A stretch of DNA of 64,000 bases, taken from positions 2,542,001-2,606,000 of the forward strand of contig NZ_CP102772.1 of assembly GCF_026020075.1 (NCBI RefSeq), given 5' to 3'. The position numbers and the translations under genes are program-made. Within the stretch, counting starts at the first letter, position 1, and each line of letters opens with the position of its first letter. Under the pieces are notes generated by a model that saw only the letters and a list, made by a program, of their open reading frames with translations, was not told where the DNA came from and did no database searches. Origin of the DNA: Bosea sp. NBC_00550 (GTDB taxonomy: Bacteria > Pseudomonadota > Alphaproteobacteria > Rhizobiales > Beijerinckiaceae). Below are positions 39,192 to 55,262 of this stretch, piece after piece.

Positions 39192-40091
39192 ATGACGCTT
39201 ACGCACGACACTCTCGGCGGTTTGTACACCGCGATCGTCACGCCACTCGATGCCGATGGGGCGGTCGACATCAAGGGCCTCCAGGCGCTGGTGCGGTTCC
39301 AGCTCGAGGCAGGCGCCGCCGGCATCGTGCCGATCGGCGGCACGGGCGAATATCCAGTCTTCTCGCGTGGTGAGCGCCGCGACATCGTCGCCGCCTGCGT
39401 CGACGTGGCCGATGGCAAGCCGGTGATCCCCGGCGTGCTCGCAACTGGCTACGAGGATGCGCTGGAAGCCGGCCGCGACTTCGCGAAGGTCGGAGCCTCG
39501 GCGGTCATGACCGTGACCCCATATTACGCACCCGGCACCCAGGAGGGTATGCGCGCCTGGTTCGCCCGTTATCGCGATGCGCTAAACCTACCGGTCATGC
39601 TCTATCAGATCCCGCGCCGCACCACCGTTTCCGCCTTCGCCGAGACGGTGCAAGCGATGGCTGAGGACGGCTCGATCATCGGCATGAAATACTCGTCGTA
39701 CGACATGCCGGACTTCATCCGCACGGTGAAGCTCGCCGGCGACAAGATCGCGATCCTCTCGGGCGAGGAACCCCTATTCGCCACCCATGTCGCGCTCGGA
39801 GCGCGCGGTGGCGTCCTCGCTTCGGCGACGATCTATCCGAAGATCTGGATCGAGATCTTCGAGCTCGCCCGCCAGGGCAAGCTGAAGGAAGCGCTCAAGC
39901 TCCAGGACAAGATCGATCCCGTCGTCGACGCCATCTATGTCGAGACCAACCCGGGCCCACTAAAGGAATATATGGCGCTCGCAGGCAGGCCGGTCGGCGG
40001 GGTCCGCCTGCCGCTGGTGGGGCCAAGCCCGGAGACGTTGGCGAAACTGAAAACCGCCGTTGCTCGGGCAAAAGCCGTCGACCTCGCCTGA
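39192..40091 (+). CDS. Dihydrodipicolinate synthase-family lyase/aldolase (DapA-like)
   Basis: 299-residue class I TIM-barrel lyase. The Schiff-base Lys is K166 in SIIGMKYSSY, the catalytic Tyr is Y138 in VMLYQIPRRT, and the 2-oxoacid-binding loop is GGTGEYPV near residue 49. Housekeeping DapA usually has YNVP where this has YQIP, so a catabolic role is likelier: a 2-keto-3-deoxy acid aldolase or a pyrroline-4-hydroxy-2-carboxylate deaminase-like enzyme. ATG 39192 starts at the barrel. It is the first gene of a long operon, 14 bases before the next. Confidence 0.9.
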   Translation: MTLTHDTLGGLYTAIVTPLDADGAVDIKGLQALVRFQLEAGAAGIVPIGGTGEYPVFSRGERRDIVAACVDVADGKPVIPGVLATGYEDALEAGRDFAKVGASAVMTVTPYYAPGTQEGMRAWFARYRDALNLPVMLYQIPRRTTVSAFAETVQAMAEDGSIIGMKYSSYDMPDFIRTVKLAGDKIAILSGEEPLFATHVALGARGGVLASATIYPKIWIEIFELARQGKLKEALKLQDKIDPVVDAIYVETNPGPLKEYMALAGRPVGGVRLPLVGPSPETLAKLKTAVARAKAVDLA

Positions 40092-40105
40092 GCGGAGAGC
40101 GGATC

Positions 40106-41533
40106 GTGATCGGGAAACTTCGCGGCATCGTCGGTGAGAAGTGGCTTATCACCGACCCGGCCGAGATGGAGCCGTGGCTCTCCGATTGGCGACAGCGCCG
40201 ACGTGGCAGGGCGCTTGCCGTGGTCCAGCCAGCTTCCACCCAGGAAGTCGCTGCGGTCGTCGCGCTCTGCGCAGCGGAGAGGCAGCCGGTCTTCCCGGTC
40301 GGCGGCAATACCGGGCTTTGCTTCGGCGCCGTGCCGGAAAGTGATCGCGGTGACAAGCCCGGCATCGTGCTCTCCCTGCGGCGCCTGAACCAAATCCGCG
40401 CCATCGACAGGGCGACGGGCATCGCCACGGTCGATGCCGGCGTCGTCCTCGGCGAGCTGCATGGCGCCGCCGCCGAGGCGGGACGGCAGTTCCCGCTGCA
40501 CCTCGGCAGCGAGGGCAGCGCCCAGATCGGCGGGCTGATCTCGACCAATGCCGGCGGAACCGGCGTCGTCCGCTACGGCCCGATGCGCGATCTCGTCGCC
40601 GGCCTGGAGGTGGTGCTGCCGGACGGGCGCGTGCTGGCGGATCTCGCGGCGTTGCGCAAGGACAATACCGGCTACATGCTGCGCCATCTCTTCATCGGCG
40701 CGGAAGGCACGCTCGGCATCATCACGGGTGCGGCGCTGAGGCTGCACCCGCAAACGCCCAACAGCGCTCATGCCTGGGTCGCCGTTACCGATCCGGCGGC
40801 AGCCGTCGCCTTGCTCGCCTCCCTGCAGGACCGGGCCGGCTCCTATATCCAGGCGTTCGAGCTGATTTCCGCCTCGCAGTTCGAGCTGGTGCGCCGGCAC
40901 GTCGAGCGGGTGCGTTTCCCCTTCGCGGAGATTCCAGCCTGGTCGGCGCTGATCGAGCTCGGCAGCGAGGATACCACCACGGACCTCCAGGCGATCCTTG
41001 AAGAAATCGTCGGCGCTTCGCTCGGAAATGGCGAATCCATGGACGCGGTCGTCGCGACCTCCGAGCAGCAGGCTGCCGAATTCTGGCACATCCGCCATTC
41101 GGTCTCCGAGGCCAACAAGAAGGAAGGCATCGGCATCGTCCATGATGTCGCCGTCCGCTCCTCCGATGTCGCCGGCTTCATCGCGGCAGCCGACAAGGTC
41201 GCAGCCAAGCGATACCCGCAAGCGGTAACGCAGGTTGTTTGCCATCTCGGCGATGGGAATGTTCACTACATCCTGATGTTCCAGCGCGACTTCTGGGCGT
41301 CGCAGCCTGACCAGGATGGTTTCGCGCTCGAAGTCGAGCGCGCCATACATGACGCCGCGGCTCGCTTCGGTGGCACGTTCAGCGCCGAGCACGGCGTCGG
41401 GCGCAAGCTGACGGAGGAGCTCGAACGCCTCGCCGATCCGCTGAAATATGAGCTGATGAGCAAGGTCAAGACGCTGTTCGACCCGCAGAACCTGATGAAT
41501 CCGGGTGTTCTGCTGGCATCGAAGGCGATCTGA
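40106..41533 (+). CDS. FAD-linked 2-hydroxyacid dehydrogenase (GlcD/D2HGDH type)
   Basis: 475-residue vanillyl-alcohol-oxidase-fold enzyme. The FAD-binding PCMH domain (residues 35-215) has VFPVGGNTGLCFGAVP and ISTNAGGTGVVRYGPMRDLV. The C-terminal cap carries the metal-ligand motif HLGDGNVHY near residue 382 and EHGVGRKLTE near 428. Relatives oxidise D-lactate, D-2-hydroxyglutarate or glycolate to the 2-oxo acid and pass electrons to quinone or ETF. It follows the DapA-like gene by 14 bases, so the two may act on successive intermediates. Confidence 0.92.
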   Translation: MIGKLRGIVGEKWLITDPAEMEPWLSDWRQRRRGRALAVVQPASTQEVAAVVALCAAERQPVFPVGGNTGLCFGAVPESDRGDKPGIVLSLRRLNQIRAIDRATGIATVDAGVVLGELHGAAAEAGRQFPLHLGSEGSAQIGGLISTNAGGTGVVRYGPMRDLVAGLEVVLPDGRVLADLAALRKDNTGYMLRHLFIGAEGTLGIITGAALRLHPQTPNSAHAWVAVTDPAAAVALLASLQDRAGSYIQAFELISASQFELVRRHVERVRFPFAEIPAWSALIELGSEDTTTDLQAILEEIVGASLGNGESMDAVVATSEQQAAEFWHIRHSVSEANKKEGIGIVHDVAVRSSDVAGFIAAADKVAAKRYPQAVTQVVCHLGDGNVHYILMFQRDFWASQPDQDGFALEVERAIHDAAARFGGTFSAEHGVGRKLTEELERLADPLKYELMSKVKTLFDPQNLMNPGVLLASKAI

Positions 41534-41554
41534 GAACGGAGAAAAAATCCGCTG

Positions 41555-41574
41555 CCGCCTCCGGTGAGAGGCGG
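41555..41574 (+). promoter_or_regulatory. Small hairpin in the leader before the binding-protein gene
   Basis: CCGCCTC and GAGGCGG form a 7-bp stem with a 6-base loop in the 126-base gap before the solute-binding gene. There is no T-run. It may stabilise or pause the transcript. Confidence 0.4.
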
Positions 41575-41659
41575 AAGGTCACGGATAGCCCGCGGGGGAA
41601 GCGGGAGCCTGCCTCACCAGACATAACGAGGTTCGCCTCACAACGCCGGGAGAGTGAAA

Positions 41660-42508: not shown

Positions 42509-42517
42509 GACTTGCCC

Positions 42518-42557
42518 GGCTTCCCGCACTCGCCTGCGGGAAGCCCATCCATTTTTT
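42518..42557 (+). terminator. Intra-operon attenuator between binding-protein and permease genes
   Basis: GGCTTCCCGC (42518-42527) and GCGGGAAGCC (42536-42545) form a perfect 10-bp stem with an 8-base loop, followed after 6 bases by six T's. It starts 10 bases after the binding-protein stop. Partial termination here would make the binding protein more abundant than the membrane components, a known pattern in ABC operons. Confidence 0.75.
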
Positions 42558-42596: not shown

Positions 42597-43262
42597 ATGT
42601 CCTATACTTGGAACTTCGATATCCTCTGGGGTTATCGCTGGATATTCCTCACAGGGACAGGCGTGACGATCGGGATCACGATAGCGATCGTGATCCTCGG
42701 TCTGATCGTGGGTTTGGTCGCGGGCATCGCTCAGCTCTCGCGATCCCCGGTGCTGCGCTGGCTGTCCTGGGCCTATATCGAGATGTTCCGGCTGACGCCG
42801 CTGCTCGTGCTGCTGCTGTGGTTCTACTACGCACTGCCGATCCTGACCGGGATCAAGCTCGACGCGATCACCGCCGCGATCCTGACGCTGACGCTGTATG
42901 GCGGTTCGTTTTATGCGGAGGTCATTCGCGGCGGAATCGTCTCGATCGATACCGGGCAGACCGAGGCGGGACTGGCCTTGGGCATGACGCCGGCGAGGGT
43001 CATGCGCCGCATCGTGCTGCCGCAGGCGATCAAGCGGATGATCCCGCCGCTGATGAACCAGTCGATCATCCAGTTCAAGAACACCTCGCTCGTCTCGGTC
43101 CTCGCCGTCCCTGATCTGCTTTATCAGGGCCAGGTGGCGGCGATGGACACCTACCGCGCCCTCGAGGTCTACACGGTGGTGGCAGTGATCTACGTGATCG
43201 TGCTGCTGCCCCTGACCGCGATCGTCAAGCAAGCCGAAAAACGGCTGGCTCAGAGCAACTGA
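42597..43262 (+). CDS. Amino-acid ABC transporter permease
   Basis: 221-residue permease of the polar amino-acid family. Helices lie near residues 18-50, 60-80, 90-110 and 185-210. The EAA loop near residues 115-145 has TEAGLALGMTPARVMRRIVL followed by PQAIKRMIPPLMNQ. I chose ATG 42597; the frame is open upstream but only through the preceding gene. It is the sole permease of this transporter and probably homodimeric. Confidence 0.92.
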   Translation: MSYTWNFDILWGYRWIFLTGTGVTIGITIAIVILGLIVGLVAGIAQLSRSPVLRWLSWAYIEMFRLTPLLVLLLWFYYALPILTGIKLDAITAAILTLTLYGGSFYAEVIRGGIVSIDTGQTEAGLALGMTPARVMRRIVLPQAIKRMIPPLMNQSIIQFKNTSLVSVLAVPDLLYQGQVAAMDTYRALEVYTVVAVIYVIVLLPLTAIVKQAEKRLAQSN

Positions 43263-43272
43263 GGGCGCAGCG

Positions 43273-44034
43273 ATGAGCTACAAGATCGAGGTCTCCGGCC
43301 TGCGCAAAAGCTTCGGCGCCCTGACGGTGCTGCGCGACATCAACCTCAAGGTCGAGCCGGCTCAGGTGATCGCATTGATCGGCCCGTCCGGGTCCGGCAA
43401 GTCGACGCTGCTGCGCTGCCTCAACCTGTTGGTCCTGCCCGAGGGCGGACGTATCCGCATCGGCAACGACAGCTTCACCTTCGGCGACGGCTCGAAGCTG
43501 CCGGCCACTCGCGAACAGGCCCGCTTCCGCTCGAACGCGGGCATGGTTTTCCAGCACTTCAACCTGTTTCCGCACATGACGGTGGTTCAAAACGTCATGG
43601 AAGGCCCGGTCTCGGTAAAGGCCATGCCTAAGCCGCAGGCCAACGAACTCGCCCGCAATCTGCTCGCCAAGGTCGGCCTGAGCGACAAGGTCGACGTCTT
43701 TCCCAATAAGCTCTCCGGCGGCCAGAAGCAGCGCGTCGCCATCGCCCGCGCCCTTGCCATGGAGCCCGAGGTAATGCTCTTCGACGAGGTGACCTCGGCG
43801 CTCGATCCCGAGCTCGTCGGCGAAGTCCTCGGCGTGATGCGCGATCTCGCGGCCGAAGGCATGACGATGATCATCGTGACCCATGAGATCGCTTTCGCTC
43901 GCGACGTGGCCGACCGCGTCGTCTTCATGCGAGATGGCGTCATCGTCGAGGAAGGACCAGCTCGCGACGTGATCGACCAGCCGAAGCAGGAGGCGACCAA
44001 GGTCTTCCTCAGCCACTTCCACAATCGCGGCTGA
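43273..44034 (+). CDS. Amino-acid ABC transporter ATP-binding protein
   Basis: 253-residue ATPase: Walker [10 protein letters not shown] near residues 37-45, signature LSGGQKQR near 147, Walker B VMLFDEVTSALDPE near 167 and switch His in IIVTHEIAFARDVA near 202. The usual DEPT is DEVT here, a tolerated variant seen in amino-acid transporters. It lies 10 bases after the permease and 9 before the DadA-like gene. Confidence 0.95.
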   Translation: MSYKIEVSGLRKSFGALTVLRDINLKVEPAQVIALIGPSGSGKSTLLRCLNLLVLPEGGRIRIGNDSFTFGDGSKLPATREQARFRSNAGMVFQHFNLFPHMTVVQNVMEGPVSVKAMPKPQANELARNLLAKVGLSDKVDVFPNKLSGGQKQRVAIARALAMEPEVMLFDEVTSALDPELVGEVLGVMRDLAAEGMTMIIVTHEIAFARDVADRVVFMRDGVIVEEGPARDVIDQPKQEATKVFLSHFHNRG

Positions 44035-44043: not shown

Positions 44044-45321
44044 ATGTCGAAGGATGCGCCCCTGACCGTCGCCGTGATCGGCGCGGGGATCGTAGGCCTA
44101 TGCGCGGCATTGGAAATCCAGCGCGACGGTCATCACGTGATCCTCATCGAACCCGGCGAACCGGGCGGTCGACAATCGGCCTCCTACGGCAACGCAACCT
44201 GGATCAACCCCGGCGCGATCGCCCCGATTTCCCTGCCTGGGCTTTGGCGCAAGGTGCCGGGCTTCCTGCTCGACCGGACCGGACCGTTCACGGTGCGCTG
44301 GCGGGACCTCCCCCGGCACGCCGGCTGGCTCGCCCGCTTCATTGCCGCCGGCCGTGACTGGGACCGCATCGCGACGAGCGCGCGCCAGCGCTATCCGCTT
44401 TGCAAGGGTACGGTGGTCGATCACCGGAACTATGCTGCTGAGGCCGGCGTCAGCGATCTTATCCGTCAGCAAGGCCTTATGTACGTCTATCCGGATCGGA
44501 CCGTCTTCGCGGCGGAGAGCCGGATCTGGTCGCTTCGCCGCGAGTTCGGGGTCCGCTTCAGCGAGATCGAGGAAGCCGAGCTGCGCCGCCTTCAGCCGGA
44601 GCTGTCGCCACATTACCGTTTCGGCGCCCGCCTCGATGATGCCGGCCAGATCGCCGACCCCGGCGCCTATTGCGCCGCCCTCGCCCGCCTGCTGGAAGCA
44701 CGCGGAATGCGACGCATCGCGGGGCGCGCGACCGGCTTCGTCATGGAGCGCGGCAGACTGAGCGCCGTCACCACGGACCAGGGTAGCCTCTCCTGCGACC
44801 GGGCCGTCCTCGCCGCGGGCATCGGATCGGCCAGTCTGGCTCGGCTCGCCGGAGACCGCGTGCCACTGATCTCCGAGCGCGGCTATCACGTCGTCATTCC
44901 CGAACCTGGCATAGCGCTCGGCGTCGGGCTGATGCCGTCGGATGGCCAGATGGGCGTCGTCTCGACGCCGCAGGGACTGCGGCTCGCCGGACAGGTCGAG
45001 CTCGCCGATCCAGCTGCCGCGCCCGACTGGCGCCGAACCGACATCCTGCTGGGCTATGCGCGCAAGATGTTTCCCGAACAGGCGATGCGCTTCGATACAG
45101 CCGAGATCGATCGCTGGATGGGCAATCGTCCCTCGACGCCGGACGCCCTGCCTTGCATCGGCTTCGCGTCCCGCTCGCGAGATATCCTGCATGCCTTCGG
45201 TCATGCCCATACCGGGCTGACCCAGGCGCCGGCGACGGGCAAGCTCGTCGCTGCACTGATAGACGGTCGCGAGCCGCCCTTTGACCCCGTCCCCTACTCC
45301 GCCCGGAGGTTCGCCCAATGA
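44044..45321 (+). CDS. D-amino-acid dehydrogenase-like FAD oxidoreductase (DadA family)
   Basis: 425-residue DAO-fold flavoprotein. The FAD motif VAVIGAGIVGLCAALEIQRD is at residues 9-28, the DadA-like SASYGNATWINPGAIAPISL near 46-65, and the C-terminal HAFGHAHTGLTQAPATG near 385. Relatives oxidise D-amino acids, D-hydroxyproline or similar cyclic amines to imines, transferring electrons to the respiratory chain. It overlaps the next (ornithine cyclodeaminase-like) gene by four bases, consistent with imine formation and reduction in one pathway. Confidence 0.9.
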   Translation: MSKDAPLTVAVIGAGIVGLCAALEIQRDGHHVILIEPGEPGGRQSASYGNATWINPGAIAPISLPGLWRKVPGFLLDRTGPFTVRWRDLPRHAGWLARFIAAGRDWDRIATSARQRYPLCKGTVVDHRNYAAEAGVSDLIRQQGLMYVYPDRTVFAAESRIWSLRREFGVRFSEIEEAELRRLQPELSPHYRFGARLDDAGQIADPGAYCAALARLLEARGMRRIAGRATGFVMERGRLSAVTTDQGSLSCDRAVLAAGIGSASLARLAGDRVPLISERGYHVVIPEPGIALGVGLMPSDGQMGVVSTPQGLRLAGQVELADPAAAPDWRRTDILLGYARKMFPEQAMRFDTAEIDRWMGNRPSTPDALPCIGFASRSRDILHAFGHAHTGLTQAPATGKLVAALIDGREPPFDPVPYSARRFAQ

Positions 45322-46286
45322 GCGAGCACCTGCTCTACCTCTCCCGCAATGACGTGAAGGCGCTCGCCATTCCTCCCGGCGAGGCGCGCGAGGCCGTGCT
45401 CGGCGCCTTCCGTGACCACGCTGCGGGTCTCAATCGCAGCCTTCCCAAGAGCGGGCTCGCGCTCGGTCCAGGCCATGCCTTCCAGGCGATGACGGCTGCA
45501 TCACAGGTAGACGGGATCGCTACCCTAAAGTGGGTCGCGATGGCACCGGTCGGCTCGGAGAGCCCGGTGCCTGGCATCAACGCCCTGATATGCGTCAGCG
45601 ACTACGAAAGCGGCGCGCCTCTGGCCGTGCTCGACGGCGACGAGATCACGTTGATCCGGACCGCCGCGCTCTCGGCGGCGGCCGCGACACGAATGGCGCC
45701 ACCCGCACCCAAGACCATCGGGTTCATCGGCTGCGGCCTTCAGGCCCATGCCCATCTCGCCGCCTTCCTAGACCTCTATCCCGGCCTGACGACAGCGCTG
45801 ATGCTGAGCCGCAGCCGGTCCTCGGCCGAACGTCTCGCAGAGGCTGGATCCAAGCGCGGGCTTGCGACGGAAATCGCTGTGGATGCGGCCACGCTTCTCA
45901 CCCGCAGCGACATCGTTATCTCAATGGTGCCGGGCGCTCCGGGCTTGAAGCCCTTCCTCGATGCCAGCCTGATGAAGCCGAACGCCTTCGCCGCCGCCGT
46001 CGACATCGGCCGTAGCTGGATTCCCGAGAATCTGCCGGCCTTCGACGTGCTTGTGACGGACAGCCTCGAGCAGTCAAAGGCTCCCTACGACATCGACGGC
46101 AACCCGGTGACCACGGTCCGTTTCGGTCACGATCTCGTTGAGCTTGCCAACGCCGCCCATCCGACGGCGCCGGGAGCCCGTTCCTTCTTCTGCTTCCGTG
46201 GTTTTGCCCTCGCCGACCTCGCGCTCGCGCATCTTGTCGTCGGCCGCGCACGCGAGCGCGGCGTCGGCACGAGATTGCCACGGTGA
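45318..46286 (+). CDS. Ornithine cyclodeaminase/mu-crystallin family protein
   Basis: 322-residue NAD(P)-dependent enzyme. The Rossmann motif TIGFIGCGLQAHAHLAAFL is near residues 133-151 and the family signature ITLIRTAALSAAAATRMA near 110-127. The family includes ornithine cyclodeaminase, alanine dehydrogenase and delta1-pyrroline-2-carboxylate/ketimine reductases. Coupled by ATGA to the DadA-like oxidase, it more likely handles cyclic imines than ornithine. The direction of reaction is not inferable. Confidence 0.88.
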   Translation: MSEHLLYLSRNDVKALAIPPGEAREAVLGAFRDHAAGLNRSLPKSGLALGPGHAFQAMTAASQVDGIATLKWVAMAPVGSESPVPGINALICVSDYESGAPLAVLDGDEITLIRTAALSAAAATRMAPPAPKTIGFIGCGLQAHAHLAAFLDLYPGLTTALMLSRSRSSAERLAEAGSKRGLATEIAVDAATLLTRSDIVISMVPGAPGLKPFLDASLMKPNAFAAAVDIGRSWIPENLPAFDVLVTDSLEQSKAPYDIDGNPVTTVRFGHDLVELANAAHPTAPGARSFFCFRGFALADLALAHLVVGRARERGVGTRLPR

Positions 46287-46296: not shown

Positions 46297-47460
46297 ATGA
46301 CCGCCAAGCCCGCCTTCGCCCATATCCTCAATATTGCCGATGCGCGCCGCGCCGCTTCTCGGCGGCTGCCGCGCGGTCTTTTCGAATATGTCGACCGCGG
46401 GAGCGAGGACGAGATCGCCATCACGACCAATCGCCGCCAGCTGGATGCGATCGCGCTTTCGCCCGCTGTGTTGGTCGATGTCTCGCAACGTTCGACCGAG
46501 GCCGAGATCCTCGGCCACCGCCAGCCGCTTCCCCTGGTGATCGCGCCCACCGCCGTCGCCGGCCTCGTCTGGTACGATGGCGAGATCGCGATAGCCAAGG
46601 CTGCGGCGGCCGCGGGCATCCCGTTCTGCGTGTCGACCCAGTCGATCACCACGGTCGAGCGCATCGCGGAGGAGTCCGGGGCCCGGCTTTGGTTCCAGCT
46701 GTATGTCTGGAAGAACCGGCAGCGCATGCTCGCCCTGCTCGACCGCGCTTGGGCCGCCGGTGCCGAGACGCTTGTCCTGACCGTCGACACGGCGGTCGGA
46801 CCCAACCGCGAATACAATCTGCGCAACGGTTTCGGCATCCCACTCAAGGCCTCGTGGCGAGCCGGGCTCGACGTTGCGCTGCACCCGCGCTGGACCGGAT
46901 CGGTCATGCTGCGGGCTCTGGCGGTGGGCGGCGTGCCCACCTATGCGCATTATCCCGACGAGTTCCGCACCAAACTCGGCCGCGCCTCGCTTTCCGATGA
47001 GCTTAGCCTGGCAACCGACGTGACCTGGAAGGATGTGGAGCTGCTGCGCCGGCATTGGCGCGGCAAGCTCGTGCTCAAGGGTATCCTGCGGGTGGCGGAT
47101 GCGCTGGCGGCCTTGGCGCACGGCGTCGATGCCATCGTCGTGTCCAACCATGGCGCGCGGAATCTCGACTGCGCCCCCGGCCCGACGCAGGTGTTGCCGG
47201 CGATCGCCGATGCTGTCGCCGACCGACTCGAGATTCTCGCTGATAGCGGCGTTCGCCGCGGCGCCGACATCGCCCGCTTCCTGGCGCTGGGCGCACGCGG
47301 CGTCCTCGTCGGGCGCGCGCCACTCTATGGCGTGGCGATCGGAGGAGCGGAGGGCGCGGGCCGCATCCTCAACATCCTGTCCAACGAGCTCAGGATCACG
47401 ATGGGAATGCTGGGGTCGCCTGCCCTCGCCGATTTGCGTCTAGCGGCCGATCAGGCCTGA
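46297..47460 (+). CDS. FMN-dependent alpha-hydroxy-acid oxidase/dehydrogenase (first copy)
   Basis: 387-residue FMN TIM barrel of the LldD/mandelate dehydrogenase/glycolate oxidase family. The N-terminal ADARRAASRRLPRGLFEYVD and PLVIAPTAVAGLVWYDGEIA bind FMN. LWFQLYVWKNR near residue 131 carries the active-site Tyr, and VSNHGARNLD near 283 the catalytic His and Arg; the usual HGGR is HGAR here. ATG 46297 lies 10 bases after the preceding gene. It converts an L-2-hydroxy acid to the 2-oxo acid; a paralogue follows the next gene. Confidence 0.9.
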   Translation: MTAKPAFAHILNIADARRAASRRLPRGLFEYVDRGSEDEIAITTNRRQLDAIALSPAVLVDVSQRSTEAEILGHRQPLPLVIAPTAVAGLVWYDGEIAIAKAAAAAGIPFCVSTQSITTVERIAEESGARLWFQLYVWKNRQRMLALLDRAWAAGAETLVLTVDTAVGPNREYNLRNGFGIPLKASWRAGLDVALHPRWTGSVMLRALAVGGVPTYAHYPDEFRTKLGRASLSDELSLATDVTWKDVELLRRHWRGKLVLKGILRVADALAALAHGVDAIVVSNHGARNLDCAPGPTQVLPAIADAVADRLEILADSGVRRGADIARFLALGARGVLVGRAPLYGVAIGGAEGAGRILNILSNELRITMGMLGSPALADLRLAADQA

Positions 47461-47479: not shown

Positions 47480-49108
47480 ATGAACGTCGCCCAGACCATG
47501 ACCTCCATCCTCAAGAAGGAAGGGGTGGAGCTGCTGTTCTGCTACCCCACGAACAAGCTGATCGACGAGGCCGCTCTGGTCGGCATCAGGCCGATCGTCG
47601 TGCGCCAGGAACGCACCGGCATGCACATGGCCGACGCCTATTCGCGCCTGTCGTCCGGACACAAGTTTGGCGTCTTCGCCATGCAGCACGGGCCGGGCAT
47701 CGAGAATTCGTACGGCTCGGTTGCGCAGGCCTATGCCGACTCCGTGCCTGTGCTCGTGATCCCGCAGGGCTATCCGCAGCGCGTCGCCGGGATCAAGCCG
47801 AACTTCAACGCCGTCCAGAGCATGCGCGACATCACCAAGTCGGCCGAGCAGCTCAACCTACCCGGCGAGGTCGTCAATGTGATGCGCCGCGCGCTGAGCC
47901 AGCTTCGCAATGGCCGCGGCGGGCCCGTGCTCGTCGAGGTGCCGAACGATCTCTGGACCGCCGAGCTGGCCCAGCCGGAGGATTACGTCCCGGTCCGCAG
48001 CCATCGCACGGCCCCCGATCCCGACGACATCGCCCGCGCCGCCGAGCTGATCGGCTCCGCCCGCAATCTCGTGATCCATGCCGGCCAAGGTGTCCATTAC
48101 GCCCAGGCCTGGGACGAATTGCGCGCACTGGCCGAGCGCCTCGCGTGCCCGGTCGTCACCACTCTGCCCGGCAAGAGCTCGTTCCCTGAGGATCATCCCC
48201 TCTCGCTCGGCTCCGGCGGGCTGACCTATCCGATGCCGGTCAAGTCCTTCCTCGACGAGGCCGACGTCATCCTCGGCGTCGGCTGCAGCTTCACCGAGAC
48301 ACTGTTCGCGGTGCCGGTGCCAAAGGGCAAGCGCATCATCCACATGACACTCGATACGGCGCATCTCAATAAGGATGTGTCAGCCGAAATCGGCCTCGTC
48401 GGCGATGCGAAGCTGGCCTTGCGGGCACTTCTGTCAGAACTGGAACGGCGCGGCTTGCAATCGGAAAAGGGCGATGCAGTTGCCGCCCGCATCCGCGACG
48501 CGCGCGAAACCTGGCTCGCCGAATGGCTACCGAAGTTGACCTCGGCGGAGACGCCGATCAATCCGTATCGCGTCGTCTGGGAGCTGATGGCGGCGACGCA
48601 AGACGAGCCAACGATCATCACCAACGACGCTGGGCGACCGCGCGACCAGCTCACACCCTTCTGGGTCGCGCGTGATCCGCTGAGCTTCATCGGCTGGGGC
48701 AAGACCACCCAGCTCGGCTACGGCCTCGGCATCGCCATGGGCGCCAAGCTTGCATGCCCGGACAAGCTCTGCATCAATGTCTGGGGCGACGCGGCGATCG
48801 GCTTTACCGGCATGGATATCGAAACCGCAGCGCGCGAGGGGATCCCGATCCTCTCGATCCTGCTCAATAACGGCGGCATGGCCACCGAGCTAAATAGCAT
48901 CCCTAATGCGATCCGCCTCTACGCGGCCAACCGCATCACCGGCAATTACTGCGACATGGCGCGCGCCTTCGGCGCCTATGCCGAGCGCATCACCGACCCG
49001 GCCGAGATCCGCGGCGCGATTGAGCGCGGCATCGCCAAAACCAAGGAAGGCCAGCCGGTCCTGCTCGAATTCATCACGGCGCAGGAAACGGCGATGTCCA
49101 AGGCCTGA
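47480..49108 (+). CDS. Thiamine-diphosphate enzyme (acetolactate synthase/benzoylformate decarboxylase-like)
   Basis: 542-residue three-domain ThDP enzyme. The catalytic Glu is E44 in IVVRQERTGMH. The central cofactor domain is near 190-330, and the C-terminal ThDP-binding motif runs from WGDAAIGFTGMDIETAAREG to LLNNGG (GDA in place of the common GDG), near residues 435-470. It sits between two FMN 2-hydroxyacid oxidases, so decarboxylation or carboligation of the 2-oxo acid they produce is a fitting role, as in the mandelate pathway. No regulatory small subunit of acetolactate synthase is nearby. Confidence 0.88.
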   Translation: MNVAQTMTSILKKEGVELLFCYPTNKLIDEAALVGIRPIVVRQERTGMHMADAYSRLSSGHKFGVFAMQHGPGIENSYGSVAQAYADSVPVLVIPQGYPQRVAGIKPNFNAVQSMRDITKSAEQLNLPGEVVNVMRRALSQLRNGRGGPVLVEVPNDLWTAELAQPEDYVPVRSHRTAPDPDDIARAAELIGSARNLVIHAGQGVHYAQAWDELRALAERLACPVVTTLPGKSSFPEDHPLSLGSGGLTYPMPVKSFLDEADVILGVGCSFTETLFAVPVPKGKRIIHMTLDTAHLNKDVSAEIGLVGDAKLALRALLSELERRGLQSEKGDAVAARIRDARETWLAEWLPKLTSAETPINPYRVVWELMAATQDEPTIITNDAGRPRDQLTPFWVARDPLSFIGWGKTTQLGYGLGIAMGAKLACPDKLCINVWGDAAIGFTGMDIETAAREGIPILSILLNNGGMATELNSIPNAIRLYAANRITGNYCDMARAFGAYAERITDPAEIRGAIERGIAKTKEGQPVLLEFITAQETAMSKA

Positions 49109-49112: not shown

Positions 49113-50285
49113 ATGGCGCTCTCGCGCTGCTTCAACATCGAGGACGTGCGGCGCGTTGCGGCGCGCCGCCTCCCGAAGGGCCTGTTCAACTTCGTCGACC
49201 GGGCGACCGAGGACGATCTGGCGCGCGACCGGAACCGCCAGGCCTTTCGCGACCTGACCTTCCTGCCGCGCACGCTCGTCGATGTCGCCGCGCGCTCGAC
49301 CGAGACCGAGCTGTTCGGCAAGCGCCACGCCATGCCGCTCGCGGTTGCGCCGGCAGGGCCTGCCGGCCTGTTCTGGTATCGTGGCGAGCTGGAGCTGGCG
49401 AAGGCCGCAGCGCGCGCTAACGTGCCCTTCACGCTCTCGACCTACTCGACCACCACCATGGCCGATATCGCCGCCACCGGCGCGACCGTGTGGCAGCAGC
49501 TCTATTTCTGGAAGGATCGCGCGCTGACCTACGGCATCGTCGATCGAGCGCGCGAACTCGGCTTCGGCGTGCTCGTCGTCACGGTCGACACGGCCGTGCT
49601 CGGCCAGCGCGAATATCTCCAGCGCGACCGGCTGATGCCGCCCTGGGGACCGACGCTGGCCTCCTGCGCTGAGATGCTGCTGCATCCGCAATGGCTGGCC
49701 GGCGTGGCACTGCGCTATCTCGCGACAGGTGGGCTGCCGCGCGTCGTCAACATGCCGCAGCCGGGCCAGGACCTCACCGCGGAGGAGATCGCCTCGCGCA
49801 CCTCGCTCTGCCAGTCCGTCACATGGGACGACATCGCCCGATTGCGTGAGCGCTGGCCCCACAAGCTGCTGCTGAAGGGCATCATGCGCGAGGAGGAGGC
49901 CGAGCGCGCCTTCGCGCTCGGCTGCGACGGTGTCGTCGTCTCGAACCATGGCGGGCGCAATCTCGACAGCGCAGCCAGCACGCTCGACGCTCTGCCCCGC
50001 ATTGTCGCCGCCGCGGGCGGCAAGGGCTCCGTCCTGCTCGACAGCGGCATCCGCCGCGGCAGCGACATCGCCAAGGCGCTCGCGCTCGGTGCTCATGCGG
50101 TTCTGGCCGGCCGCGCGCCGCTCTATGGCGTCGCCGCCGGAGGCGAAGCCGGCGCCTATCACGTGCTGAGCCTGCTGCAATCCGAACTCGACCGCACCAT
50201 GGCGCTGACCGGCTGCCGCTCCGTGGCCGAATTGACACGGGACTTGATCGCCGAAGGGCGAACGGAGACAGACCATGGCGCGTGA
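49113..50285 (+). CDS. FMN-dependent alpha-hydroxy-acid oxidase/dehydrogenase (second copy)
   Basis: 390-residue paralogue of the enzyme at 46297. It has the same N-terminal pattern (RRVAARRLPKGLFNFVDRAT), the Tyr segment VWQQLYFWKDR near residue 126, and the catalytic VVSNHGGRNLDSA near 273 with the canonical HGGR. The 5' end is 4 bases after the ThDP gene and the 3' end overlaps the next flavoprotein by 11 bases. Differences in the substrate loop between the copies suggest different chain lengths or stereochemistry. Confidence 0.9.
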   Translation: MALSRCFNIEDVRRVAARRLPKGLFNFVDRATEDDLARDRNRQAFRDLTFLPRTLVDVAARSTETELFGKRHAMPLAVAPAGPAGLFWYRGELELAKAAARANVPFTLSTYSTTTMADIAATGATVWQQLYFWKDRALTYGIVDRARELGFGVLVVTVDTAVLGQREYLQRDRLMPPWGPTLASCAEMLLHPQWLAGVALRYLATGGLPRVVNMPQPGQDLTAEEIASRTSLCQSVTWDDIARLRERWPHKLLLKGIMREEEAERAFALGCDGVVVSNHGGRNLDSAASTLDALPRIVAAAGGKGSVLLDSGIRRGSDIAKALALGAHAVLAGRAPLYGVAAGGEAGAYHVLSLLQSELDRTMALTGCRSVAELTRDLIAEGRTETDHGA

Positions 50286-51720
50286 GAAAGATGCCGACGT
50301 CATTGTCGTCGGCGGTGGCGCGGCGGGCGCTTGCGCCTTCCTCGAAGCCGCGACGGCGGGAGCCAGGGTCATTGGCCTCGACGCGGCCGATGGCTTCGGC
50401 GGGACGGCCCGGCTTGCCGGCGGCGGCATGTGCGTGCCGGGCACGGCCTTGCAGGCCGAACGCGGCATCTCCGATTCACCCGAACTCGCCTTCGCCGATC
50501 TGGCGGCCGGCGGGCATGATTTCGACCGCGACTGGGCCCGAACCTATTTCGAGCGCGGCCACACCGACCTGATCGACTGGCTCACCGGGCTCGGCATGAC
50601 CTTCCCCGACATCAGGCATTTCGAAGGCGAGAGCGTCCCGCGTTTCCATCGCCCGCTGAACGGCGGCGCGGGCCTGATGGCGATCCTGTGGGAGCGCTTC
50701 AAGGAACGGAACCTCCAATCAGCCTGGCGTTTTGGCTGGCGGCTCACCGATCTCATCGTCGAGGACGGCAAGGTCGGCGGTGTCGTCTGCCGCGACGCCG
50801 AGGGCCGCGAGCAACGGCTCTATGCCCCGGCGGTGGTGATCGCCATCGGCGGCTTCGCCGGCAGCCTGGAGATGATCCGCCGCCATGCCCGCCGCCTCGA
50901 AGGCGTGCCGCAGATTTTGGCGGGCGGCGGCCCCGGCGCCAAGGGCGAGGCCATCGCGCTCCTGCAGCGCCACCGCGTGCGCTTCGGCTATCTCGATGAT
51001 CTCTATTGCTACGCCACCGGCGTGCCCGATTATCGCGATCCGACCGGCGAGCGCGGCATCGTCTTCCGCGGCAAGACGGGCTGGCTCTGGCTCAACCGCA
51101 ACGGCGAGCGCTTCCACGACGAAAGCCAGTCGACCAGCGGCAATCTCTCGGTTCCGCGCCTGCTCGCACAGCCTGAGGCAACGGGCTGGGCGATCTTCGA
51201 CGAGGCGATGTTGCCTGGCATAGGGGTCGACGACCACCACGTCCCGCCGGGCTCGGAAACCGGCAACGAGGCGGCCAGGCGCCATATCGCCCACTCCTCC
51301 TGGGTCTCACGAGCCGACACGCTCGACGAGCTCTTCCGTAGCGCCGGCATCGACGCAGAGGGCGCCGCACGCACCGTCGCGCAATGGAACGGCTGGCTTG
51401 CCAGCGGGCTGGCGCGCGACCCCGTCACCGACCGCCCCCTCGCCGGTCTTCCGCCATTAGCCAAACCACCCTTCTACGCGGTCCGCTTCGTCCCGATCGG
51501 CCGCAAGTCGATGGGCGGCGTGCAGACCGACCGGGACTGCCGCGTCCTGCTGGAAACGGGCGATACCCTGCCCGGCCTCTACGCGGCCGGCGAGGTCGCG
51601 GGCATGGCCGGCGGCCATATCGGCGGCATCAAGCCGCTCGAGGGCATGATGGTCGGGCCGAGCTGCTTCAGCGGCCGCATTGCCGGACGCGAAGCAGCGG
51701 GTTTCGCCGTGACTGCCTGA
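50275..51720 (+). CDS. FAD-dependent oxidoreductase, fumarate reductase/3-ketosteroid dehydrogenase type
   Basis: 481-residue flavoprotein. The FAD motif VIVVGGGAAGACAFLEAATA is at residues 9-28, and GGTARLAGGGMCVPGTALQA near 42 is the usual second FAD contact. The C-terminal AAGEVAGMAGGHIGGIKPLE with GMMVGPSCFSGRIAG closes the site. Relatives such as tricarballylate dehydrogenase and KsdD introduce or reduce a C=C bond next to a carbonyl. It overlaps the preceding gene, so it is part of the pathway. The substrate is unknown. Confidence 0.87.
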   Translation: MAREKDADVIVVGGGAAGACAFLEAATAGARVIGLDAADGFGGTARLAGGGMCVPGTALQAERGISDSPELAFADLAAGGHDFDRDWARTYFERGHTDLIDWLTGLGMTFPDIRHFEGESVPRFHRPLNGGAGLMAILWERFKERNLQSAWRFGWRLTDLIVEDGKVGGVVCRDAEGREQRLYAPAVVIAIGGFAGSLEMIRRHARRLEGVPQILAGGGPGAKGEAIALLQRHRVRFGYLDDLYCYATGVPDYRDPTGERGIVFRGKTGWLWLNRNGERFHDESQSTSGNLSVPRLLAQPEATGWAIFDEAMLPGIGVDDHHVPPGSETGNEAARRHIAHSSWVSRADTLDELFRSAGIDAEGAARTVAQWNGWLASGLARDPVTDRPLAGLPPLAKPPFYAVRFVPIGRKSMGGVQTDRDCRVLLETGDTLPGLYAAGEVAGMAGGHIGGIKPLEGMMVGPSCFSGRIAGREAAGFAVTA

Positions 51721-51791: not shown

Positions 51792-52856
51792 ATGACCGGC
51801 CATCGCTTCATTGAGCTCTACAGCGACACCAAATCGCTCCCGACCGAGGCGATGCGCCGCTTCATGATGGCGGCGCCCCTCGGCGACGAGCAAAAGGACG
51901 AGGACAAGACCACGCTTTCCCTGTGCGAGCGCGTCGCCGCGATGCTCGGCCAGGAGGCCGCCGTCTTCCTGCCTTCCGGCACGATGTGCAACGAGATCGC
52001 GATCGCCGTGCATTGCCGCCCCGGCGAGGAGGTGATCTGCGACGCCACCGCGCATATCGTGAATTTCGAAACGGGCGGGCCCAGCGCACTCTCCGGCGTG
52101 ATGATCCGCACGCTCGACGGCGAGCGCGGCATCTTCACGGCCGATGCGTTGCGCCAGGCCATCCGCCCGGAGAGTCGTTACGCGCCGCGCTCGCGCCTCG
52201 TCTGCGTCGAGCAGACCGCCAATCTCGGTGGCGGCGCGGTCTGGCCGCTCTCCGTCATTCGCGAAGTGGCGGAGACCGCCCGGCAGGCCGGCCTCTCGCT
52301 CCATCTCGACGGCGCACGCCTGCTCAACGCGGTGGTGGAGAGCAAGGTGTCAGCGGCGGCCCATGCCAGCCCCTTCGACTCCGCCTGGCTGGACCTGACC
52401 AAGGGGCTGGGCTGCCCGGTCGGTGCGGTGCTGGCCGGATCGCGTGACTTCATCCGTGAGGCCTGGCGCCTGAAGCAGCGCTGGGGCGGGGCTATGCGTC
52501 AGTCGGGCATCCTCGCTGCCGCCGGTCTCTACGCCCTCGACCACCATGTCGAGAGGCTGGCAGAGGACCATGCCAATGCCCACCGGCTCGGCGCCGGGCT
52601 TGCCGCGATTCCGGGCATCCGCCTCGAACACGAACGCATCGAGACGAACATCCTCTATTTCGACATCGCCGGAACCGGCGTCACTGCCGAGGCCCTGGTC
52701 GGGGCACTGAAGGTGGCCGGTGTCGGCATGGGCGCCTTCGGCACGCATCGTATCCGGGCGGTGACGCATATCGGGGTCACGACGGCCGACATCGATGCGT
52801 GCCTCAACATCTTTCGCAATGTGCTGTCCGAGCTGTCCATGAAGCGCGCCGGCTGA
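51792..52856 (+). CDS. Threonine aldolase-like PLP enzyme
   Basis: 354-residue fold-type-I enzyme of the beta-eliminating lyase/L-threonine aldolase family. The PLP Lys is K204 in WLDLTKGLGCPVGAVLAG, the stacking His is H88 in DATAHIVNFETGGPSALSG, and HLDGARLLNA near 171 holds the cofactor Asp and Arg. It cleaves beta-hydroxy-alpha-amino acids to glycine plus an aldehyde. The following molybdenum hydroxylase could then handle an aldehyde. It lies 71 bases after the previous gene. Confidence 0.92.
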   Translation: MTGHRFIELYSDTKSLPTEAMRRFMMAAPLGDEQKDEDKTTLSLCERVAAMLGQEAAVFLPSGTMCNEIAIAVHCRPGEEVICDATAHIVNFETGGPSALSGVMIRTLDGERGIFTADALRQAIRPESRYAPRSRLVCVEQTANLGGGAVWPLSVIREVAETARQAGLSLHLDGARLLNAVVESKVSAAAHASPFDSAWLDLTKGLGCPVGAVLAGSRDFIREAWRLKQRWGGAMRQSGILAAAGLYALDHHVERLAEDHANAHRLGAGLAAIPGIRLEHERIETNILYFDIAGTGVTAEALVGALKVAGVGMGAFGTHRIRAVTHIGVTTADIDACLNIFRNVLSELSMKRAG

Positions 52857-52925
52857 CATCCCGACCCGAAACGTGCAGAGCGGTTTCCGGAACGAACTGA
52901 CGCAAACTCGAAAAGTCGTCGCCTG

Positions 52926-55262
52926 ATGCCTGCAAAGCCTTCCACCCCCGCGACGGCGCCGATCCCGGCTCCTGCGGACCCGCGCTCACTGCGTCGCTTC
53001 GAGGATGAGCGCTTCCTGACGGGGCAGGGCCGCTATCTGGGTGATGACGAGGTCCGTGGCGCGCTGCATGCCATGGTGCTGCGCTCACCCCATGCCCATG
53101 CCGAGATCCTGTCGATCGATGCCGCGGCCGCACGAAACCTGCCGGGCGTTCACGCCGTCTATGCCGCAGCCGATATTGCCGAGCTCGGCCCCCTGCCCTG
53201 CTCGCTGGCGGTGATCGGCGAGGCGCCGCTGATCGTGCCGCCCCGCTTGCCGCTCGCCGATGAGCGCGTGCGCCATGTCGGCGACCCCGTCGCCTTCGTC
53301 GTGGCCGACAGCGTCGATCTTGCCCGCGAGGCCTGCGAGCTGATCGCCGTCGACTACGACATCCTGCCCTCGGTCACCGAGCTCGCCGCAGCAGTGGAAC
53401 CCGGCGCGCCGGAAATCTGGTCGCAGGCGCCCGGTAACCTCGCCCTGCGCTATCGGCTCGGCGACGAGGCGGCCGTTGCCGCGGCCTTCGAGCAGGCCGC
53501 CCATATCGTGAGCTGCCGGGTCGTCAACAACCGAATCGTGGCGGCCGCGCTCGAGCCGCGGGTGGCGCTCGGGCGTTTCGACAAGGCGAGCGGCCGCTAC
53601 CGCCTGTCCTTGAGCGGAGCCTCGGTGCACGACATCCGCCGCGAACTGGCGGCAGTGCTGCATATCGCCTCCGAGCGGATCGACGTCGCCTGTCCCGATG
53701 TCGGCGGCGGCTTCGGCATGAAGAACGTCACCTATCCGGAATATGCGCTGGTGCTCGTCGCCGCCCAGCGCCTCGGCCGGCCAGTGCGTTGGCTCGCCGA
53801 GCGCATCGAGGATTTTTCCAGCGGCGTCCACGCCCGCGACAACCTGACGACCGGCCGGCTCGCGCTGGATGCGAAGGGCCGTTTCCTGGCTCTAAAGGTC
53901 GAAACCGTCGCCAATCTCGGCGCCTATGTCTCCTCGCTGGGACCGGGCAGTGCCACCACGGCGCCGACGCCCGCTTTCGGGGGCCTCTACGACATCCCCA
54001 CGATGACGGTCGATGTCCGTTGCGTCTTCACCAATACCGTGCCGATCGACGCCTATCGCGGCGCCGGCAAGCCGGAGGCGAACTACCTGATCGAGAGGCT
54101 GGTGGACGAAGCCGCTCATCGCCTGCGGATTGACCCCGCGACCCTGCGCAAGCGCAATTTCATCCGCCGCTTTCCCTATCAGAAGCCCTTCGGGGCCGTG
54201 CTCGATTGTGGGACCTTCGGTCCCAACCTCGACCGTGTCCTGGCCGAGGTCGACCGTGCCGGATTCCGCCAGCGGCGGGCGCAGTCGCGCCGGCGCGGCA
54301 AGCTGCGCGGCTTCGGCATCGGCTGCTTCCTGGAAACCTCTCGCGGGTCTCCGAACGAGGACGCGTGGCTGACGGCTCACGCTGATGGCGCCATCGCCAT
54401 GGCGGTGGGCACCCAGTCGAACGGACAAGGTCACGAAACGAGCTTCGCGCAGCTCCTGTCGAGCGAGCTCGGGCTGCCCGTGGAGCGCTTCCGCCTGGTC
54501 CAGGGCGATACGGCGCTCGTCCCCAGCGGCGGCGGCCATGGCGGCGCCCGCTCGCTGCATCTGGGCGGCGGCGCTCTCGTCCTGGCGGCGCGGGCGCTGG
54601 TCGCGACTGCCAAGCCGGTCGCGGCCGAGCTCCTTCAAAGCCAGCCGGAGGCCGTCACGTTCCGTGACGGTCGCTTCCACGCTCCCGGCGCGGGCGAGGT
54701 CGACCTCGCGACCGTCGCGCGCCATGTCGCGGACACGACCGGCAAGCCGCTCGCGAGCCATGGCGCCCGTCGGAACGTGCCCTACACCTTCCCGAACGGT
54801 GCGCAGGCCGCCGAGGTCGAGGTCGATCCGGAAACCGGCGAAGTAAGCCTGCTGCGCTACGTCGCCGTCGACGACTACGGCTCGCTGGTGAACCCGTTGC
54901 TGACCGAGGCGCAGGTCCATGGCGGGCTGGCGCAAGGCATCGGCCAGGCGCTGATGGAGGAAGCCCGCTACGACCCCGATGGCGGCCAGCTGCTGAGCGC
55001 GACCTTCATGGACTACGCGATGCCGCGCGCCATGGATCTGCCGACCTTCGAGATCTCGATGGTCGAGCTGCCGACGCAGGCCAACCCGCTCGGTGCCAAG
55101 GGCGTGGGCCAGGCCGGCTGTATCGGCGCGCCCCAGACCGTGATCCACGCCATCCTCGATGCGCTACGCCCGCTCGGCGTCACGCATCTCGACATGCCCG
55201 CCACACCCTCCCGCGTCTGGCATGCGATCCGGGAGGCACAGAAGGCTCAGAGGAAGGATTGA
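52926..55262 (+). CDS. Molybdenum hydroxylase large subunit (xanthine/aldehyde dehydrogenase family)
   Basis: 778-residue molybdopterin-cytosine-dinucleotide-binding subunit (CoxL/XdhB-like). Cofactor loops are CPDVGGGFGMKNVTYPEYAL near residue 258, DAYRGAGKPEANYLIERLVD near 375, GTQSNGQGHETSFAQLL near 496 and GGGHGGARSLHLGG near 535. The active-site motif usually reads GVGEAG with catalytic Glu, but here it is AKGVGQAG: the codon at 55110 is CAG, giving Gln at about 729. The [2Fe-2S] and FAD partner subunits are not in the window; IS6 debris begins 118 bases downstream. It may be inactive, have altered chemistry, or use partners elsewhere. Confidence 0.9.
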   Translation: MPAKPSTPATAPIPAPADPRSLRRFEDERFLTGQGRYLGDDEVRGALHAMVLRSPHAHAEILSIDAAAARNLPGVHAVYAAADIAELGPLPCSLAVIGEAPLIVPPRLPLADERVRHVGDPVAFVVADSVDLAREACELIAVDYDILPSVTELAAAVEPGAPEIWSQAPGNLALRYRLGDEAAVAAAFEQAAHIVSCRVVNNRIVAAALEPRVALGRFDKASGRYRLSLSGASVHDIRRELAAVLHIASERIDVACPDVGGGFGMKNVTYPEYALVLVAAQRLGRPVRWLAERIEDFSSGVHARDNLTTGRLALDAKGRFLALKVETVANLGAYVSSLGPGSATTAPTPAFGGLYDIPTMTVDVRCVFTNTVPIDAYRGAGKPEANYLIERLVDEAAHRLRIDPATLRKRNFIRRFPYQKPFGAVLDCGTFGPNLDRVLAEVDRAGFRQRRAQSRRRGKLRGFGIGCFLETSRGSPNEDAWLTAHADGAIAMAVGTQSNGQGHETSFAQLLSSELGLPVERFRLVQGDTALVPSGGGHGGARSLHLGGGALVLAARALVATAKPVAAELLQSQPEAVTFRDGRFHAPGAGEVDLATVARHVADTTGKPLASHGARRNVPYTFPNGAQAAEVEVDPETGEVSLLRYVAVDDYGSLVNPLLTEAQVHGGLAQGIGQALMEEARYDPDGGQLLSATFMDYAMPRAMDLPTFEISMVELPTQANPLGAKGVGQAGCIGAPQTVIHAILDALRPLGVTHLDMPATPSRVWHAIREAQKAQRKD

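What the first reader, a model, noticed from the sequence alone, without database searches (positions are those of the whole stretch)
39192..55262. Candidate undescribed 13-gene amino-acid/2-hydroxy-acid catabolic operon
Transporter, DadA-like oxidase, cyclodeaminase-like reductase, DapA-like lyase, FAD and FMN hydroxyacid dehydrogenases, ThDP enzyme, fumarate-reductase-like flavoprotein, threonine-aldolase-like enzyme and Mo hydroxylase all run in one direction, many overlapping. One consistent reading: an imported D- or hydroxy-amino acid is oxidised to an imine or 2-oxo acid, cleaved by aldolases, 2-hydroxy acids are oxidised and decarboxylated to aldehydes, and aldehydes are oxidised. I know of no characterised pathway with this set.
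Basis: inference. Interest (0 to 1): 0.75.

Follow-up and report, generated by a model that had tools for sequence, protein, structure and literature searches.

The report
Eight-gene uptake-and-oxidation cassette plus add-ons
The thirteen same-direction genes are real, but they are not one inherited unit: eight form a cassette that recurs in other Bosea species and probably imports and oxidises an organic acid, and the last five look like add-ons with other histories.

Summary
All 13 genes exist at the stated coordinates, on one strand, tightly packed. DNA similarity to 15 other genomes of the genus (Bosea) covers a divergent HTH-cupin regulator plus DapA-GlcD-SBP-permease-ATPase-DadA-OCD-FMN1 and ends within or at the end of FMN1 in all 15 (47,345-47,456). 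DadA-OCD is missing as a pair from 4 of 15, on two branches. In the 66 other genus genomes FAD2 was not found, ThDP in 2, the threonine-aldolase-like gene at 65% or more in 5, the Mo protein in 24. FMN2-FAD2 appears linked elsewhere. Best reading: an importer for a carboxylate without a free alpha-amino group (the amine-binding Asp is Phe in 16 of 16 binding proteins), D- and L-2-hydroxy-acid dehydrogenases, a DapA-type lyase and an optional amine-oxidase/imine-reductase pair. Substrate unknown. The Mo protein has Gln at the catalytic Glu in 119 of 120 listed relatives and no nearby Fe-S subunit gene, so the proposed aldehyde-oxidation step is doubtful.

The parts
38305..38946 (-). REG2: divergent HTH (HTH_3) + Cupin_2 transcription regulator, first gene of the conserved cassette
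   Evidence: Pfam; 68-88% identical and divergent in all 15 relatives; similarity starts at 38293-38312
39192..40091 (+). DapA: DHDPS-family Schiff-base lyase/dehydratase, 299 aa
   Evidence: PF00701 1.7e-60; TIGR00674 219 bits, cut-off 206; GMK motif kept in all 19 relatives aligned
40106..41533 (+). GlcD-like FAD-linked D-2-hydroxy-acid dehydrogenase, 475 aa
   Evidence: PF01565, PF02913
41660..42508 (+). SBP: family 3 solute-binding protein with the amine-binding Asp replaced by Phe, 282 aa
   Evidence: PF00497; alignment to AncCDT-1; 16 of 16 cassette SBPs, own included
42597..43262 (+). ABC permease of polar amino acid type, 221 aa
   Evidence: PF00528; TIGR01726 over cut-off
43273..44034 (+). 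ABC ATPase of polar amino acid type, 253 aa
   Evidence: PF00005
44044..45321 (+). DadA-like FAD-dependent amine oxidase/dehydrogenase (DAO), 425 aa; optional
   Evidence: PF01266 4.3e-58; absent together with OCD from 4 of 15 cassettes
45318..46286 (+). OCD/mu-crystallin family imine-reductase-like protein, 322 aa; optional
   Evidence: PF02423 1.7e-24; pair with DadA also in Chelatococcus pCO-6
46297..47460 (+). FMN1: FMN-dependent L-2-hydroxy-acid dehydrogenase, 387 aa; last gene of the conserved cassette
   Evidence: PF01070 6.6e-123; lactate oxidases and (S)-mandelate dehydrogenases head the solved relatives; similarity to relatives ends here
47480..49108 (+). ThDP: thiamine-diphosphate enzyme of the NF004807 group, 542 aa; first tail gene
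   Evidence: NF004807 811.8 bits, cut-off 607; 3 of 67 genus genomes including own at E<=1e-100
49113..50285 (+). FMN2: second FMN-dependent 2-hydroxy-acid dehydrogenase (47% to FMN1), 390 aa
   Evidence: PF01070; identity to FMN1; active-site columns
50275..51720 (+). FAD2: fumarate-reductase/flavocytochrome-c-like flavoprotein, 481 aa; apparently linked to FMN2 elsewhere
   Evidence: PF00890; equal contig lengths and sources with FMN2 relatives
51792..52856 (+). ThrA: L-threonine-aldolase-like PLP enzyme, 354 aa
   Evidence: PF01212 and NF041359 over cut-off; L-allo-threonine aldolases are closest solved chains
52926..55262 (+). MoH: Mo-hydroxylase (xanthine oxidase family) large subunit with Gln at the catalytic Glu and no Fe-S subunit gene nearby, 778 aa
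   Evidence: PF01315/PF02738/PF20256

Best explanation
Positions 38305-47460 are a self-contained catabolic cassette found in 16 of 67 Bosea genomes searched: a divergent HTH-cupin regulator, a one-permease ABC importer, a D-specific (GlcD-like) and an L-specific (FMN1) 2-hydroxy-acid dehydrogenase, a DapA-type lyase, and an optional DadA-OCD pair. Inferred mechanism: the importer takes up a carboxylate without a free alpha-ammonium group (a 2-hydroxy acid, or an N-substituted amino acid). GlcD and FMN1 oxidise the D and L forms to one 2-oxo acid, which DapA cleaves or dehydrates. Where present, DadA-OCD adds an amine-containing form: DadA makes the imine, and OCD reduces it (or it hydrolyses to the 2-oxo acid). 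The five genes 47480-55262 stand behind FMN1 only in this genome of those searched. FMN2 with its partner FAD2, plus ThDP, probably oxidise and decarboxylate a further 2-hydroxy acid; ThrA and MoH may have no part in the same route. Shown here: the two-part inheritance within the sampled genomes, the loss or gain of DadA-OCD as a pair, the residue changes. Supported but indirect: the FMN2-FAD2 linkage. Inferred: every reaction and the substrate class.
For: DNA similarity (query 36,001-50,000, HSPs over 200 bp) starts at 38,293-38,312 and ends at 47,345-47,456 in 15 of 15 relatives; the only matches behind it are FMN1-type matches to FMN2. Gene order. DadA-OCD missing from 4 of 15, on two branches, with junctions at 44,037-44,038 and 46,288-46,310. 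Sequence behind FMN1 shared (over 1 kb) only among L090, L091, L092, L095. Importer: carboxylate Arg kept, amine Asp to Phe in 16 of 16, and no Asp in 4 related SBPs; role of the Asp from PMC5431781, passages read. Of 7 loci with a 55-60% FMN1 relative, 5 (L225, L227, L228, L229, L093) also hold GlcD and DapA relatives; L094 has GlcD only, L226 (short contig) neither. FMN2 and FAD2 relatives share four contig lengths and sources. ThDP lies near an FMN dehydrogenase in L038, L052, L108, L111.
Against: The 67 genus genomes are one per species and not all species. FMN2 at 84% (Bosea sp. RAF48) and 94%, and FAD2 at 70-88%, exist outside them with neighbours that could not be read, so the tail may be a unit in unsampled relatives. 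MoH occurs in 7 of the 15 cassette genomes and 17 of the other 51, and in G442, G445 and G456 it lies about 47-64 kb from the cassette (coordinates), so it is not wholly independent of it there. Gaps of 19, 4 and -11 bp between FMN1, ThDP, FMN2 and FAD2 favour co-transcription today. In 3 of 15 relatives the regulator-DapA intergenic stretch does not align. A binding protein can hold an amine without that Asp, so the substrate-class argument is indirect. No assay, no ligand. The ThDP-FMN association is seen in only 4 of 32 ThDP loci examined (26 plasmid loci genus loci).
Confidence: 0.55

Rival explanations
1. One reading: one 13-gene operon for one imported D- or hydroxy-amino acid, through imine, 2-oxo acid, aldolase, decarboxylase and aldehyde oxidation.
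For: Tight same-strand packing; enzyme families chemically compatible.
Against: Similarity stops at FMN1 in 15 of 15 relatives; ThDP, MoH and ThrA relatives lie apart from the cassette in the loci fetched; MoH lacks the catalytic Glu and a partner subunit gene nearby; SBP lacks the amine Asp.
Confidence: 0.07
2. The cassette is a variant of hydroxyproline/imino-acid catabolism: DadA oxidises a cyclic D-imino acid, DapA acts as pyrroline-hydroxy-carboxylate deaminase, OCD as pyrroline-carboxylate reductase.
For: The DAAO, DHDPS and OCD families are the ones used in 4- and 3-hydroxyproline pathways (PMC4113996, passages read); a pyrroline-carboxylate reductase model hits OCD weakly (69 bits, cut-off 400).
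Against: No proline-racemase-superfamily and no aldehyde dehydrogenase match among the 13; DapA stays in 4 cassettes that lack DadA and OCD; two hydroxy-acid dehydrogenases have no role in that route. The rest of the genome was not searched for the missing genes.
Confidence: 0.12
3. The cassette takes up opine-like N-substituted amino acids: DadA splits the secondary amine to an amino acid and a 2-oxo acid, OCD acts as an opine-type dehydrogenase, and the other enzymes handle the 2-oxo/2-hydroxy acid.
For: SBP keeps the carboxylate Arg but not the amine Asp; nopaline-binding proteins are among the SBP's solved relatives, at E about 1e-8; tauropine dehydrogenase is in the OCD superfamily (PMC4113996, passage read).
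Against: No second (OoxA-type) or Fe-S subunit gene beside DadA in the window; transporter, DapA, GlcD and FMN1 persist without DadA-OCD.
Confidence: 0.2
4. DadA-OCD is a D-to-L amino acid inversion pair like DauA-DauB (D-arginine dehydrogenase and NAD(P)-dependent L-arginine dehydrogenase).
For: Same two families, adjacent and absent together; L-arginine dehydrogenase lies in the OCD superfamily (PMC4113996). The DauA/DauB assignment is otherwise recalled.
Against: Below the cut-off of every named D-amino-acid dehydrogenase and OCD model listed; the shared SBP lacks the amine-binding Asp.
Confidence: 0.25

Closest known systems
trans-4-hydroxy-L-proline / trans-3-hydroxy-L-proline catabolic clusters
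   Same: DAAO, DHDPS and OCD superfamily enzymes beside an importer
   Different: No epimerase/dehydratase of the proline racemase superfamily and no KGSA dehydrogenase among the 13; two hydroxy-acid dehydrogenases instead
DauA-DauB D-arginine inversion pair (recalled, partly)
   Same: FAD amine dehydrogenase next to an OCD-superfamily protein
   Different: Below cut-off of named models; embedded with DapA, GlcD and FMN1
Mandelate pathway (mdlB/mdlC/mdlD; recalled)
   Same: FMN 2-hydroxy-acid dehydrogenase plus ThDP enzyme, as FMN2-ThDP in the tail
   Different: ThDP is of the NF004807 group, whose function is not named; no aldehyde dehydrogenase of the usual family among the 13; FMN-ThDP neighbours seen in few loci
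Plasmid cassettes SBP-permease-ATPase-DadA with an enolase-superfamily or Asp/Glu-racemase-like gene and another ThDP enzyme (Bosea sp. 685, Tistrella mobilis, Shinella sp. WSC3-e)
   Same: Homologous importer (ATPase 67-69%) and DadA (49-51%); SBP also lacks the amine Asp
   Different: No DapA, GlcD, OCD or FMN1 match in the 25-kb stretches; their ThDP enzyme is only 28-29% identical

Membership tests
Hydroxyproline catabolic operon | Proline-racemase-superfamily epimerase or dehydratase in the cluster | tested here: not met
   No such match among the 13 proteins; rest of the genome not searched for it
Hydroxyproline catabolic operon | Aldehyde dehydrogenase (KGSA dehydrogenase) in the cluster | tested here: not met
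   No Aldedh among the 13; one lies beside the distant DapA in L228
Hydroxyproline catabolic operon | DAAO- and DHDPS-superfamily enzymes together | tested here: met
   but DHDPS remains where DAO is absent
Polar amino acid ABC importer | SBP Arg for the alpha-carboxylate and Asp for the alpha-amino group (LAOBP R77/D161) | tested here: not met
   Arg present, Asp replaced by Phe in 16 of 16
Xanthine-oxidase-family Mo hydroxylase | Hammerhead and two Mo-cofactor-binding domains | tested here: met
   PF01315, PF02738, PF20256
Xanthine-oxidase-family Mo hydroxylase | Catalytic Glu (bovine Glu1261) | tested here: not met
   Gln in the window, in 119 of the 120 listed relatives (one, P0140, has Glu) and in 24 of 24 Bosea orthologues
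Xanthine-oxidase-family Mo hydroxylase | Adjacent Fe-S subunit gene | tested here: not met
   None in the 64-kb window or in 36 loci of 24 genomes; the search recovered all 6 own-genome Fer2_2 loci
Xanthine-oxidase-family Mo hydroxylase | Adjacent FAD subunit gene | tested here: inconclusive
   Only a motif search, which found nothing but also nothing in the six own-genome control loci
Biosynthetic DapA (TIGR00674) | Score over the curated cut-off | tested here: met
   219.1 against 206.15, yet the gene lies in a catabolic cassette; activity not testable here
Low-specificity L-threonine aldolase | Beta_elim_lyase family and closest solved relatives | tested here: met

The most novel reading that the evidence does not exclude
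The last gene belongs to a large group of xanthine-oxidase-family large subunits that have exchanged the otherwise strictly conserved catalytic Glu for Gln and have no linked Fe-S subunit gene (FAD subunit not tested), so they carry out a chemistry other than ordinary Mo hydroxylation and serve different catabolic loci as a movable accessory.
Probability: 0.3. Interest if true: 0.65.

Novelty: new variant of a known kind. Interest (0 to 1): 0.36.

Why it matters
It replaces one speculative 13-gene pathway by a defined nine-gene unit with clear borders, an optional two-gene part and a residue-based limit on what is imported. Those are direct targets for growth, binding and deletion tests in Bosea. 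It also points to a group of Mo-hydroxylase-like proteins that lack the residue thought essential; the searches made here found no description of it.

Tried and rejected
FAD2 as a marker for the tail in genome contigs returned 65 relatives, the best at 46% (49% over a 109-residue piece), and no shared neighbourhood. Plasmid search for FAD2 at E 1e-60: no match. Class search: four other genomes of 385 at 34-36%; order search at E 1e-110: own only, of 397. ThDP neighbourhoods in 26 loci (14 of them from one genus, f36/g42) gave no common partner. Horizontal acquisition of the tail by composition: GC3 is 0.84-0.86 in the tail and 0.79-0.86 in the cassette, not decisive. Terminator and promoter scan: counts no higher than in shuffles; one strong stem-loop behind SBP. 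Fumarate reductase for FAD2: the acid-Arg region is kept, but a His and an Arg of the flavocytochrome c pocket align to Lys (residue roles recalled), so not filed there. Literature searches. From their listings, and the passages read, I saw no description of this cassette or of Gln-type Mo proteins; most subscription papers are missing from that library. The first regular expression for Fe-S subunits found only 3 of 6 controls and was replaced by a tblastn test.
Full report
WHAT IS THERE. The window is G000:C1:2542001-2606000 of a 6.27-Mb genome. Two HTH-cupin regulators lie upstream on the - strand.

CONSERVATION SPLITS THE 13 GENES. FMN1 is found at 76-92% identity in 15 other genomes of the 67 searched in the genus; G408 and G411 also have copies at 55-56%. 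All 15 loci were fetched. All have REG2 divergent from DapA-GlcD-SBP-permease-ATPase, then DadA-OCD in 11 of 15, then FMN1. With window 36,001-50,000 as DNA query, pieces over 200 bp start at 38,293-38,312 (the 3' end of REG2) and end at 47,345-47,456 (the 3' part or end of FMN1). In three loci the REG2-DapA gap does not align. Behind FMN1 only FMN1-type matches to FMN2 appear. In the four loci without DadA-OCD, similarity jumps from 44,037-44,038 to 46,288-46,310. A FastTree tree of six concatenated proteins puts these four on two branches: L099+L100+L101 (support 0.885) and L223. DadA-OCD is thus gained or lost as a pair; the same pair sits together in Chelatococcus pCO-6 at 52 and 48% identity. 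The 4 kb behind FMN1 is shared over more than 1 kb only among L090, L091, L092 and L095, so the cassette occupies several places.

THE TAIL. No orthologue of a tail gene follows FMN1 in the roughly 9 kb seen in each of the 15 relatives; L101 has a 28% ThDP relative there, inside a second cassette. In the genus, FAD2 occurs in 1 of 67 (own; E 1e-80). ThDP occurs in 3 of 67, own included; the other copies are 70% (beside hydantoinase A/B and transporter genes) and 49% identical. FMN dehydrogenases are common (65 of 67 genomes at E 1e-60), but the best match to FMN2 in another genus genome is 50%. ThrA at 65-72% occurs in 5 other genomes (one partial), one of which has the cassette, plus one at 56%. 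MoH at 70-86% occurs in 24 others: in 7 of the 15 with the cassette and 17 of the other 51. Twelve of the 24 loci were fetched, with no other tail gene near MoH. In G442, G445 and G456, MoH and cassette lie about 47-64 kb apart on one contig (coordinates), which speaks for some regional linkage there. In the 5.8-billion-protein set FAD2 has 16 relatives at 54-88%. Comparing the first 20 FAD2, 28 FMN2 and 22 MoH rows, four FAD2 and FMN2 relatives share contig length and source (8256, 11682, 282541 and 5249 bases), and none shares one with MoH. Contig names are not given, so equal length is taken as the same contig: FMN2-FAD2 is probably a linked pair. Against a purely local origin of the tail: FMN2 at 84-94% and FAD2 at 70-88% exist in Bosea or unnamed contigs whose neighbourhoods could not be read.

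LIMITS ON MECHANISM. The SBP's best solved relatives are reconstructed ancestors of cyclohexadienyl dehydratase, of which AncCDT-1 binds L-arginine (PMC7683729, passages read). In amino-acid binders an Arg holds the alpha-carboxylate and an Asp the alpha-amino group (LAOBP R77 and D161; PMC5431781, passages read). The window SBP keeps the Arg, but the Asp column of AncCDT-1 aligns to Phe, and this holds in 16 of 16 cassette SBPs. Four SBPs of related DadA cassettes also lack the Asp. A 2-hydroxy acid or an N-substituted amino acid is the simplest ligand class; this is inference. GlcD and FMN1 belong to families of D- and L-specific 2-hydroxy-acid dehydrogenases, and FMN1 keeps all seven active-site columns examined (roles recalled). 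FMN2 has Phe where FMN1 has Tyr in one of them. Of seven loci with a distant FMN1 (55-60%), five hold GlcD and DapA relatives too (L225, L227, L228, L229, L093), with a TRAP transporter in L225 and an SBP_bac_8-type ABC protein in L228, the latter also with an aldehyde dehydrogenase and a DAO gene. This makes the trio the likely chemical core: both stereoisomers to one 2-oxo acid, then a Schiff-base lyase.

THE MO PROTEIN. MoH aligns a Gln to the catalytic Glu of two CO dehydrogenases. In R. capsulatus XDH, mutation of the equivalent Glu730 cut the limiting rate at least 10^7-fold (PMC9966888, passages read), and a 2021 paper calls the residue strictly conserved (PMC8305194, passages read). 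Gln is present in 119 of the 120 listed relatives (of 7020 at E 1e-150; one, P0140, has Glu) and in 24 of 24 Bosea orthologues. With five Fe-S subunit frames of the own genome as tblastn queries, which recover all 6 own-genome Fer2_2 loci, no Fe-S subunit gene is found in the window or in 36 loci from 24 genomes (24 with about 1.5 kb each side, 12 of those genomes also with about 7 kb). The FAD subunit was not tested adequately. Partner subunits encoded elsewhere are not excluded: the own genome has six Fer2_2 loci outside the window.

VERDICT. The packing is real, but the single-pathway claim is not supported. The defensible object is a nine-gene cassette with an optional pair, of unknown substrate, followed by a composite tail. 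Confidence is high for the split within the sampled genomes (about 0.9), low for the chemistry (about 0.35).

Noticed in passing
52926-55262 and 24 Bosea orthologues (L231-L254): Mo-hydroxylase large subunits with Gln at the catalytic Glu, without a nearby Fe-S subunit gene, beside various genes (amidohydrolase/M20 peptidase, periplasmic binding proteins, SDR, carboxyltransferase among those annotated).
   Followed up: partly
42518-42545: 11-bp G+C-rich stem-loop between SBP and permease (z -2.74 for the intergenic stretch); its conservation was not tested.
   Followed up: no
32393-35080: 895-aa open frame made of an IS481 transposase part, an ABC-ATPase fragment and an arabinofuranosidase (ArfA), as if an insertion had joined them.
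   Followed up: no
35265-36044, 55508-56053, 57328-58032: IS5-type transposase upstream and IS240-type transposases (one partial) downstream of the 13 genes.
   Followed up: no
36777-37406: Second HTH-cupin (PuuR-like) regulator; relatives at 35-36% accompany the distant FMN1-GlcD-DapA loci L227, L228, L229, L093.
   Followed up: no
58204-63376: Neighbouring genes for a TctC binding protein, two SnoaL-like proteins, a GFO/IDH/MocA oxidoreductase and a FAD_binding_2 protein.
   Followed up: no
L101 723-15218: In genome G453 the cassette (without DadA-OCD) lies next to a related SBP-permease-ATPase-DadA-ThDP cassette.
   Followed up: no
G442, G445, G456: MoH orthologue and cassette lie about 47-64 kb apart on the same contig in these three genomes.
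   Followed up: no
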